NCBI GenBank assembly: GCA_947630155.1
Contig: CANRGM010000002.1
Coordinates: 1 to 44,003, forward strand
Direction of reading: 5' to 3'
Source of the DNA: an uncultured Clostridia bacterium
GTDB lineage: Bacteria > Bacillota > Clostridia > TANB77 > CAG-508
Length of the DNA: 44,003 nt
Of this stretch, positions 8,816 to 43,913 are shown in pieces. The notes below the pieces were generated by a model. It searched no databases, was not told the origin of the DNA, and was given only the letters and a program-made list of their open reading frames with translations. A program made the translations under genes and the position numbers. How positions within the stretch are numbered: the stretch's first letter is position 1; each line of letters opens with the position of its first letter.

Positions 8816-8989
8816 GGGGGCCGTCCAATTTACTAATTATGTAACACCATTAAATATATTAACATTCCGTTCGTTTGCTGGCGTGGGGATTTGGGAGGAA
8901 GACGTGGGGTGGGGGCGCCAAACTGCGCACTCCACTTCATGTTAATATATTTAATGGTGTTACATAATTAGTAAATTGGACTACTCTAC
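8816..8989. repeat. Large hairpin element, copy 1 (43-bp arms, 73-nt GC-rich loop)
   Basis: Arms 8823-8865 and 8939-8981 are exact reverse complements; loop 8866-8938; same architecture and 67/73 loop identity with 43678-43851. Confidence 0.95.
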
Positions 8990-10391: not shown

Positions 10392-10498
10392 AATATCACT
10401 TCCTTTTTACTCCATATAATATATTTTATGATTTTGATTTATATTAGATTACAGATTTTGAAAAAATTAGTATTATTTTGTCTACTTTTAGTCTGTAT

Positions 10499-10577
10499 TT
10501 GTTGTCAATGGGGACGGAGATTTTTGACACACCTTTTTATTTATTGTGTCAAAAATCTCCGTCCCCATTGACAACAA
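10499..10577. repeat. 33-bp-arm hairpin with GGGGACGGAGATTTTTGACAC motif
   Basis: Arms 10499-10531 and 10545-10577 are exact reverse complements around a 13-nt loop. Confidence 0.92.
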
Positions 10578-10707
10578 TTTTAAAAGAAAAAAATAAAAGA
10601 AGTATTGTAATAAAATCAACCTTATGATATGATTTCATCAAGGTTTAGTGTGGCTAACTAAAGATAAAATTAAAACAAACATAACAAAAGAAAGGGGAGA
10701 TTAAATA

Positions 10708-16363: not shown

Positions 16364-17281
16364 ATGAAATTTAAGAAATCAATTATAATAGGTATTGTAC
16401 TTCTAGTTATAGTTATTATTGCTGTTAAAAGTCAAATATCGGCTAGTAATGATGATCAAGATAATTCTGTTCCAATAGATAGAACAAGTGTAATATTAGT
16501 CAAAGATGAAAATGATGAAAAATTAATTCATGTTCGTCTAGGAATGAAAGAAGACGCAAGTGTTGCATCTTTCCAAATTGGTTTAGATTTAAATATAACA
16601 AATGATGCAGAAGTTGAATTTACATGGAGTGAAAATTTAAATGAAGAAAAATTCAAAGAGTACAGATATAACAAACCAAGCAATGATACATCAGATAGAT
16701 TAGAAAAAAGATTGAATCTATATTATGTTGGAACACAAGAATTAAATGATGGGGAAAATAATGAACTTGATATTGGAACAATCAAAATTACAGAAAATAA
16801 AGAAGCAACAGTAAAAATATCTCCAGATGCTGAATTTACAACTATTGAGTCAATAGGTTATACACCTACTGAATTAGAAATTAAAGAAGAGGATACGTTG
16901 AGTTATATAATGAATGATGAAACACCAGGAACTTCAGAAACACCAGGAACTTCAGAAACTCCAGAGACTCCAGGAACTCCAGAGACCCCAGGAACTCCAG
17001 AGACTCCAGGAACTTCAGAAACTCCAGGAACTCCAGAAACACCAGGAACACCAGGAAACCCAGGAACCACAGAAACTCCAGGAATCCCAGGAACTCCAGA
17101 AACTCCAGAAGAACAAAAGGATAAGGGAGTTGCAGGAATAATTCCAATTATATATCCAAATACAGGTATAGTTTGGGTAAATAATGTATTATTTGCAGCT
17201 GAAATAGTGGTATTTGCCGTAATAATTTTGGCTATTATACGCAGAATAAATAAAAAACAAGTAAAACGCAGTAAACATTAA
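16364..17281 (+). CDS. Surface-anchored protein with cohesin-like N-terminal domain and (ETPGTP)n stalk
   Basis: N-terminal hydrophobic signal, beta-rich VASFQIGLDLN...IGTIKITENKEATVKIS region, TPGTPE repeats, C-terminal YPNTG + hydrophobic segment + RRINKKQVKRSKH tail. Confidence 0.65.
   Translation: MKFKKSIIIGIVLLVIVIIAVKSQISASNDDQDNSVPIDRTSVILVKDENDEKLIHVRLGMKEDASVASFQIGLDLNITNDAEVEFTWSENLNEEKFKEYRYNKPSNDTSDRLEKRLNLYYVGTQELNDGENNELDIGTIKITENKEATVKISPDAEFTTIESIGYTPTELEIKEEDTLSYIMNDETPGTSETPGTSETPETPGTPETPGTPETPGTSETPGTPETPGTPGNPGTTETPGIPGTPETPEEQKDKGVAGIIPIIYPNTGIVWVNNVLFAAEIVVFAVIILAIIRRINKKQVKRSKH
16921..17110 (+). repeat. Tandem repeat encoding Pro/Thr/Glu/Gly stalk
   Basis: Iterated variants of ccaggaact / ccagaaact 9-mers. 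Confidence 0.9.
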
Positions 17282-42148: not shown

Positions 42149-43655
42149 GGAATTTTGTAAAATAAAAAAATGGTTAAAATCTGTAAGAATTAAACTTTTT
42201 TTTACACTATGTATTGTTATTACAATGATTATATTATTATTGATTATTGTAAATAATATTGTTTTAGAAAAATTTTACTTATATAACAAAACTAAAACAA
42301 TGAAATTGATTTATGAAGAAATTAATAAATCATATAATAATAATTTATCTTATGAAACAATAGAGCATAATTTAAAAGATTTGTCTATAAGAAATAATCT
42401 TGATATTGTGATAAAAACAAATGATAATATTTTAATTCTTGCAACTGATAAATATAAGATAGATTATGAAAATCAAATAAAATTTTTCTATAATTTAAAG
42501 AATAATGGAGAAAAGTTACAATCATTATATAATGAAGAAAATATTAATATAAATTTAATGAAAGAAGATGACACGAAAGTTAATTATATAGTAGTTTCAG
42601 CAGATTTGGATAATGGATATGAATTATATATGGAAACTCCAACAGCTGACTTACAAGAGAGTGCTAAAATTTCAAACAATTTATTGATAACTCTTGGAGG
42701 TGTGGTTATTATTATTTCTGGAATTATTGCATCTTTTGTGTCAAGAAAATTTACTGCACCAATATTGGAATTGAATGGAATTGCACAGAAAATGTCCAAT
42801 TTAGATTTTTCACAAAAATATGAAACTAAAGATGCAGAAGATGAAATTAATAATTTAGGTAAAAGTATCAATACAATGTCAGATAAATTGGAGAAAACTA
42901 TAAATCAATTGAAGGTAAATAATAGTGAACTAGAAAAGGATATTGAGCGAAAATCTAAAATAGATGAGATGAGAAAACAATTTATATCAGATGTATCTCA
43001 TGAATTAAAAACTCCTATTGCATTAATTCAAGGATATGCAGAGGGATTGGTTGAAAATGTGAATGTGGATAATGAGTCTAGAGAATTTTATGCAAATGTT
43101 ATACTAGATGAGGCTAATAAAATGGATATGCTTGTTAAACAATTATTGGAGTTAATGAAATTGGAGTATGGAAAACTTGAGTTTAATAATGAAAGCTTTG
43201 ATATTGTTTCTTTAATTAATGAGGTTATAAGAAAATCTAATGTTATGTTGGAAGAAAATAATATAAAAATTACATTTGATGAGAGTAATTCTATAATGGT
43301 TTATGCTGATGTATTTTATATAGAACAAATTATTACGAATTATCTTACAAATGCTATTAGGTATTCTAAAGAGATTGATGGAGAAAGGAAAATTGTTGTT
43401 AGTGTATCTTTGAATCCAGAGAAAAATAGAGTTAGAGTTAGTGTGTTTAATTCTGGTGATAATATTGAAGATAGTGAGTTACAGAAGATTTGGGGAAGGT
43501 TTTATAAGATTGATTCTTCTAGAAATAGAGAAAATGGTGGAACAGGGATAGGTTTGGCTTTTGTTAAGGCTATTATGAATAATTATAAGAATGAGTATGG
43601 AGCAGTTAATAAGGTTGGGGGAGTTGAGTTTTTCTTTGAGGTTGAGGTAGGTTGA
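42135..43655 (+). CDS. HAMP-domain sensor histidine kinase (TTG start, overlaps RR by 14 nt)
   Basis: Two TM segments, HAMP, SDVSHELKTPIALIQGYAEGL H-box, GGTGIGLAFVKAIM G-box. Confidence 0.94.
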   Translation: MKLNEEFCKIKKWLKSVRIKLFFTLCIVITMIILLLIIVNNIVLEKFYLYNKTKTMKLIYEEINKSYNNNLSYETIEHNLKDLSIRNNLDIVIKTNDNILILATDKYKIDYENQIKFFYNLKNNGEKLQSLYNEENININLMKEDDTKVNYIVVSADLDNGYELYMETPTADLQESAKISNNLLITLGGVVIIISGIIASFVSRKFTAPILELNGIAQKMSNLDFSQKYETKDAEDEINNLGKSINTMSDKLEKTINQLKVNNSELEKDIERKSKIDEMRKQFISDVSHELKTPIALIQGYAEGLVENVNVDNESREFYANVILDEANKMDMLVKQLLELMKLEYGKLEFNNESFDIVSLINEVIRKSNVMLEENNIKITFDESNSIMVYADVFYIEQIITNYLTNAIRYSKEIDGERKIVVSVSLNPEKNRVRVSVFNSGDNIEDSELQKIWGRFYKIDSSRNRENGGTGIGLAFVKAIMNNYKNEYGAVNKVGGVEFFFEVEVG

Positions 43656-43677
43656 TGTTTTTTGGGGGGCTTTTGCA

Positions 43678-43851
43678 GGGGGCCGTCCAATTCAATAGTT
43701 ATGTAACGCCGTTAAATATATTATTATTCCGTTCGTTTGCTGGCGTGGGAGTTTGGGAGGAAGACTTTAGGTGGGGGCGCCAAACTGCGCACTCCACTGC
43801 ATAATAATATATTTAACGGCGTTACATAACTATTGAATTGGACTACTCTAC
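43678..43851. repeat. Large hairpin element, copy 2
   Basis: Arms 43685-43727 and 43801-43843 exact reverse complements; loop 43728-43800; same as 8816-8989. Confidence 0.95.
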
Positions 43852-43913
43852 AGTTTCTTCCTTGAAAAAATATTAAATAGTAATTGTTATTTCGTTGATT
43901 TTGCGGAAAATAC

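What the first reader, a model, noticed from the sequence alone, without database searches (positions are those of the whole stretch)
43678..43851. Second copy shows seven fully compensated arm substitutions
Left arms differ at arm positions 9 (T/C), 11 (C/A), 14 (A/G), 24 (A/G), 27 (A/G), 40 (A/T), 41 (C/T), and each right arm carries the exact complement, so both stems stay 43/43 Watson-Crick paired with no G-U. Such covariation implies selection on the fold, or arm homogenisation by intrastrand template switching / hairpin copying. Absence of any G-U intermediate leans toward a DNA-level mechanism; that is inference.
Basis: partly seen in the sequence, partly recalled or inferred. Interest (0 to 1): 0.85.

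Follow-up and report, generated by a model that had tools for sequence, protein, structure and literature searches.

The report
Mobile hairpins whose arms mutate together
In a genus of uncultured gut and rumen Clostridia, a small mobile DNA repeat carries a long hairpin whose two arms keep changing sequence yet stay perfect mirror copies, most likely because one arm is repeatedly re-copied from the other at the DNA level.

Summary
They belong to a 225-260 bp MITE-like family (ends GTTACTGTTTAAYACTTTT, 8-bp target duplications). I found 104 copies in nine assemblies: one genus plus one stray MAG contig.

In 45 copies with canonical arms, 99.6% of cells pair. 26 of 43 pairs vary, every one with double changes (213 cells), none one-sided only. 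Three lines favour DNA-level arm copying over RNA-level compensation. G.T and A.C mismatches are equally rare (21 and 18 of 4060 pairs). Private compensated changes are mostly transversions (39 of 51). At five orthologous loci, pairs diverge as fast as flanking DNA (12 compensated, 1 not).

Three further cases fit. One right arm is an inverted copy of the upstream gene's 3' end, stop codon included. One element is homogenised out to its termini. One mismatch is shared by eight insertions and also occurs in both resolved states.

Quasipalindrome correction by template switching explains this best (about 0.72). The process is known; the family and scale are new. Conserved loop and arm motifs suggest an additional, unidentified function.

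The parts
43685..43727 (+). Left hairpin arm of copy 2 (43 nt)
   Evidence: Exact reverse complement of 43801-43843
43728..43800 (+). Loop/core of copy 2 (73 nt), conserved across the family
   Evidence: Conserved motifs CCGTTCGTTTGCTGGCG, AAGAC and GCGCCAAACTGCGCACT in 96 distinct copies
43801..43843 (+). Right hairpin arm of copy 2 (43 nt)
43651..43884 (+). Putative full MITE-like element around copy 2 (ends inferred, degenerate: GTTGATG... and ...ATTAAATAGTAAT; no target duplication visible)
   Evidence: By comparison with intact G002/G012/G014 elements with ends GTTACTGTTTAAYACTTTT and 8-bp duplications; read directly
8823..8865 (+). Left hairpin arm of copy 1 (43 nt)
8866..8938 (+). Loop/core of copy 1 (73 nt)
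   Evidence: conserved core
8939..8981 (+). Right hairpin arm of copy 1 (43 nt)

Best explanation
This is a genus-specific MITE-like element. Intact copies are about 225-260 bp, with inverted ends GTTACTGTTTAAYACTTTT and 8-bp target duplications, and they carry a long hairpin with a conserved ~75-nt loop. The arms evolve in concert because one arm is occasionally used as template to resynthesise the other during DNA replication or repair (quasipalindrome correction, short-range template switching). A point change in one arm is then either erased or copied to the partner, so pairs keep changing while pairing stays near-perfect. Longer switches can extend the arms into flanking DNA. Shown: the copies, target duplications, compensated divergence, G.T/A.C symmetry, transversion excess, outward homogenisation, and an inverted copy of host coding sequence. 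Inferred: the replication-level mechanism itself. Sequence conservation of the loop and of arm motifs TTATGTA and TATATTA implies an additional protein- or RNA-level role that I could not identify.
For:: 213 double-changed cells against 5 G.U and 7 unpaired of 1934; no pair varies on one side only. G.T 21 and A.C 18 of 4060 pairs (binomial p = 0.75); 51 private compensated states against 7 private mismatches; 39 of 51 are transversions, versus 49 of 120 flank substitutions (Fisher p = 2e-5); five G000/G009 orthologous loci, 12 compensated and 1 half-changed of 210 pairs (about 6%) against about 4% in flanks; right arm of L167 is an inverted copy of the 3' end of the upstream gene, stop codon included. 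L220 is perfectly palindromic for 75 bp from its ends, with its target duplication intact; one pair exists as A.C, A:T and G:C in 14 near-identical copies.
Against: Template switching was not observed directly. G012 copies keep a one-base bulge of variable identity in the inner arm, which arm copying has not removed. Loop and arm motifs are conserved in sequence and orientation relative to genes is biased, so selection acts too. The neutral-rate comparison rests on five loci with partly coding flanks. Changes cluster in a few copies, so the 51 private states are not all independent. The genomes are metagenome bins.
Confidence: 0.72

Rival explanations
1. RNA-level selection: the hairpin is transcribed and works as RNA (mRNA 3' end, RNase III site or ncRNA), and independent compensatory mutations keep it paired.
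For: Strong covariation; conserved loop; orientation bias 40 to 12 in tandem-gene contexts; some copies directly after stop codons at sites where other species have ordinary terminators; variable-identity bulge in G012.
Against: G.U no commoner than A.C; mostly transversions; pairs diverge at about the flank rate, too fast for two-step compensation (population-genetic argument, inference); a single mismatch in a 43-bp helix should matter little; inverted host coding sequence in one arm.
Confidence: 0.12
2. Ectopic gene conversion between dispersed copies replaces whole hairpins, moving both arms together, so compensated differences are shuffled rather than newly made.
For: Many similar copies per genome; L203 has a loop mixing two subfamilies; clustered differences at the orthologous pair L014/L058.
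Against: 51 compensated states are private within their genome, so no known copy could donate them; the double changes must still originate somehow.
Confidence: 0.08
3. Hairpin copying at transposition: each new copy is made through a single-stranded hairpin intermediate in which one arm is resynthesised from the other.
For: Most young copies are perfect.
Against: Eight G014 copies at different sites, several with clear 8-bp target duplications, share the same A.C mismatch; compensated changes also occur between orthologous, non-moving copies; no RVT_1 domain found in G000 or G009.
Confidence: 0.04
4. Assembly artefact: all genomes are metagenome bins, and short-read graph simplification merged slightly different arms into perfect ones.
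For: All loci come from bins and some hairpins lie near contig ends; G008, the least fragmented bin, shows the most mismatches.
Against: A graph bubble needs shared k-mers on both sides of a difference; the outer 14 columns lack a shared outer flank yet hold about 89 of the 213 double changes. Such merging should also have collapsed the many similar copies. G008 still has copy-specific, mostly paired arms. This argument is inference; reads were not available.
Confidence: 0.04

Closest known systems
Quasipalindrome correction / short-range template-switch mutation (PMC8794818, PMC7202029, PMC8604942)
   Same: Arms of imperfect inverted repeats made identical in one event; can create long perfect stems, multi-base changes and arm extension; described as transversion-biased in bacteria (PMC8604942).
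   Different: Usually studied at single hotspots or in rRNA stems; here it appears across dozens of dispersed mobile copies and can be followed between orthologous sites.
Long perfect inverted repeats of nematomorph mitochondrial genes (PMC6649704)
   Same: Long perfect arms whose sequence and length vary between species while arm identity is kept; the authors propose a repeat-conversion mechanism.
   Different: Those are within mitochondrial genes; these are dispersed, intergenic, mobile bacterial elements with a conserved loop.
Bacterial MITEs and small mobile repeats (reviewed in PMC2229807)
   Same: Short, non-coding, inverted ends, target-site duplication, many intergenic copies.
   Different: Carries an internal hairpin with 40 bp or longer arms that co-vary; no partner transposase found.
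REP/REPIN elements (PMC3116915)
   Same: Dispersed palindromic intergenic repeats.
   Different: REPs are 20-40 bp palindromes (PMC3733652); these elements are about 230 bp with inverted ends and 8-bp target duplications.

Membership tests
MITE | Short non-coding element with terminal inverted repeats | tested here: met
   225-260 bp, ends GTTACTGTTTAAYACTTTT in G002, G012, G014; ends degenerate in the window copies
MITE | Target-site duplication of fixed length | tested here: met
   8-bp duplications in several copies of G002, G012 and in most copies of a G014 subfamily; not detectable at the window copies
MITE | Related autonomous transposon with the same ends | tested here: inconclusive
   None found; only the ISL3 and IS256-type (Transposase_mut) families were searched and both were absent
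Quasipalindrome correction by template switching | Both arms change together without one-sided intermediates | tested here: met
Quasipalindrome correction by template switching | No preference for RNA-type (G.U) mismatches | tested here: met
   21 G.T and 18 A.C of 4060 pairs
Quasipalindrome correction by template switching | Inverted copy of sequence from the other side of the hairpin | tested here: met
   L167 arm copies gene 3' end; L220 homogenised to its ends
Quasipalindrome correction by template switching | Conversion event observed during replication | not testable with these tools
   Needs an experiment
Known structured RNA (Rfam) | Match at gathering score | tested here: not met
   No match in the window; only a spurious long-hairpin miRNA model at E = 1.5e-7, far below its gathering score
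Intrinsic terminator | GC-rich stem, short loop, T-run after the stem | tested here: not met
   No terminator-like site near copy 2; some G005/G006 copies have T-rich arms
REP/REPIN-RAYT | 20-40 bp palindromes associated with RAYT transposase | not tested
   Element size and target duplications differ; no RAYT search was made

The most novel reading that the evidence does not exclude
The hairpin is a self-perpetuating DNA structure: template switching both repairs it and lets its arms grow by copying host flank, so the palindrome outlives its transposon ends, exchanges its whole arm sequence at fixed sites, and may take over the role of terminators at gene ends.
Probability: 0.25. Interest if true: 0.75.

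Novelty: new variant of a known kind. Interest (0 to 1): 0.62.

Why it matters
Covariation is usually read as proof of RNA structure under selection. This family looks like a natural control in which a DNA process gives textbook covariation without G.U intermediates and at about the neutral rate. It offers simple diagnostics (G.T versus A.C symmetry, transversion share, rate relative to flanks, inverted host sequence) for telling DNA-level arm copying from RNA selection, and a dense set of loci for measuring template switching in bacteria.

Tried and rejected
Known ncRNA: no Rfam match. Phage origin: no viral contig carries the core. Autonomous transposase: the one candidate TIR pair (L137) encloses ABC-transporter genes and its right end is a weak chance match; ISL3 and IS256-type transposases absent from six carrier genomes. 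Loss of palindrome- or quasipalindrome-related nucleases: sbcD gives only weak matches in most genomes and none in G000, xseA is present in all 16, and neither tracks carriage. Reverse transcription: no RVT_1 in G000 or G009. Integron attC: considered from motif resemblance only, not pursued. Intrinsic terminator in the window: none scored. Core inserting into the loop of an existing terminator: suggestive arms in G005 and G006, but orthologous species do not show the same terminator sequence, so unproven. Outer-arm enrichment of mismatches: 11 of 28 in the outermost 10 bp, p = 0.08, not significant.

Full report
OBSERVATION. Window copies at 8823-8981 and 43685-43843 each have 43-nt arms that are exact reverse complements around a 73-nt loop. 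Folding of copy 2 gives z = -13.

FAMILY. The window is contig C2 of a 1.15 Mb bin (G000), which holds about 16 copies. Seven of 15 other genomes of the genus carry it at E <= 0.001, and none of the 43 genomes sampled from the rest of its family and order did. A scan of one genome per species for 85,488 species found the core only in those genomes and in one contig filed under UBA3803 (records near the window's own genome may be left out of that scan). No viral contig has it. I collected 104 distinct copies. The conserved part is the inner arm (AATATATTA) plus a ~75-nt loop: CCGTTCGTTTGCTGGCG, AAGAC, and GCGCCAAACTGCGCACTCCACTGC.

ANATOMY. In G002, G012 and G014 intact elements run from GTTACTGTTTAAYACTTTT to its inverted copy and are flanked by 8-bp duplications, for example ATAAAATG, CATAATTG and CGACAAAT. 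A second G014 subfamily, GTTACAATTCAGG..., has 14 near-identical copies, most with clear 8-bp duplications. A 69-bp derivative without the hairpin also has a duplication (L239, GTCTTTAG). The window copies have degenerate ends and no visible duplication. The same outer ends can enclose other long hairpins (L140, L237).

COVARIATION. For 45 copies of G000, G002 and G009 the structure count gives 99.6% paired cells, against 86% in shuffles and 34-40% for slid partners. 26 of 43 pairs show double changes and no pair varies on one side only; 213 cells are double-changed while 5 are G.U and 7 unpaired. 39 of the 45 copies are perfect, with 37 distinct left arms. Shuffles do not keep relatedness, so I add tests that do not rely on them.

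DNA OR RNA. (a) Strand symmetry: a G.T mismatch would be a G.U wobble in RNA from one strand, an A.C mismatch a G.U wobble in RNA from the other. Counts over 4060 pairs are 21 and 18. (b) Spectrum: private compensated states are 12 transitions and 39 transversions, while flanks show 71 transitions and 49 transversions. Part of this contrast comes from clustered changes in a few copies and from coding flanks. For comparison, 61% of instantaneous compensations in rRNA are of the transition type (PMC8794818), and earlier bacterial template-switch data are described as transversion-biased (PMC8604942). (c) Rate: at five loci shared by G000 and G009, 12 of 210 pairs differ by compensation and one is half-changed, while flanks differ at about 4%. 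A sixth difference at the very end of one arm is ambiguous because of an indel. Two more distant orthologous pairs add 4 and 8 compensated changes and no half-changes. If mismatches are copied either way with equal chance, pairs should diverge at the single-site neutral rate. If mismatches are purged by selection and rescued by a second mutation, they should diverge far more slowly. The data match the first; this argument is population-genetic inference, not a tool result.

FOOTPRINTS. L167 (G012) has 80-nt arms with four non-matching positions near the loop. Its left arm begins inside the last codons of a glucosaminidase-like gene (CTA AAA TAA), and its right arm contains the inverted copy of that stretch. 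The gene is intact and alignable in seven other genomes of the genus and on the UBA3803 contig, so the coding side is the original. L220 (G014) is perfectly palindromic for 75 bp from its ends, where canonical copies have unlike outer left and right segments, and it keeps its duplication TTTATTAC. L098 shows the same with four mismatches. In the 14-copy G014 set a single pair is A.C in eight copies, A:T in five and G:C in one, while nearly everything else is identical. So a mismatch can pass through transposition, and both resolved states exist.

LIMITS. Decay is seen. G008 copies have about 5% mismatches, and a relic at tsf in G014 has lost core and pairing while the orthologous G005 and G006 copies differ by four compensated changes and one G.T. 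Most G012 copies keep one unpaired base of variable identity in the inner left arm, which arm copying has not removed. TTATGTA and TATATTA in the arms are invariant. In tandem-gene contexts 40 copies run with the genes and 12 against (ORF-based, orthologues not removed). These facts point to a further constraint, perhaps protein binding, transcription or replication direction. All genomes are bins; graph simplification should not homogenise differences near the outer arm ends, where about 89 of 213 double changes lie, but I had no reads to check.

SITE COMPARISON. Between the glucosaminidase gene and pfkA, four species have ordinary terminator-like hairpins, G012 and the UBA3803 contig have this element with unrelated 69-80 nt arms, and G000 and G009 have other long hairpins. 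The rhodanese and membrane-protein sites behave alike. This suggests hairpin turnover at gene ends, but does not show that the core inserts into terminators.

PLACE AMONG KNOWN THINGS. As an element it is a MITE by size, ends and duplication, with no partner transposase found. As a process it works like quasipalindrome correction. The nearest parallel is the set of long perfect repeats in nematomorph mitochondria (PMC6649704). What is new, as far as the searches here show, is an undescribed family in which the process acts over dozens of dispersed loci and can be measured between orthologous sites.

Noticed in passing
window 10486-10590: Another long hairpin, 46-nt arms 87% complementary, containing GGGGACGGAG; GGGACGG/GGGGACGCGTCCC hairpins also lie between genes in related genomes.
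   Followed up: no
L237, L245: A second long-armed hairpin family with a different loop (GCTTAAGTGGGAACCGGC...), in L237 enclosed by the same GTTACTGTTTAA ends.
   Followed up: partly
L244, L267, L271: A third hairpin family (GCCAAGAGAAATAAAATAATAAAAATAAAAATTT...) at gene ends in G000 and G009.
   Followed up: no
L255 (G014): Core-less, nearly loop-less palindrome GTTACAATTCAGG...CCTGAATTGTAAC with target duplication AAAAATTG: either the element before gaining the core or after losing it.
   Followed up: no
L218 (DFEL01000168.1, filed as Cyanobacteria bacterium UBA3803): Carries the element with 69-bp perfect arms between the same glucosaminidase and pfkA genes as this genus, so probably a mis-binned contig.
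   Followed up: partly
window 16892-17144: 9-nt tandem repeats encoding a Pro/Glu/Thr/Gly-rich stretch in ORF 16364-17281.
   Followed up: no
G000 genome: No sbcD (TIGR00619) match in this 99%-complete bin although 14 of 16 genus genomes give a weak one.
   Followed up: no
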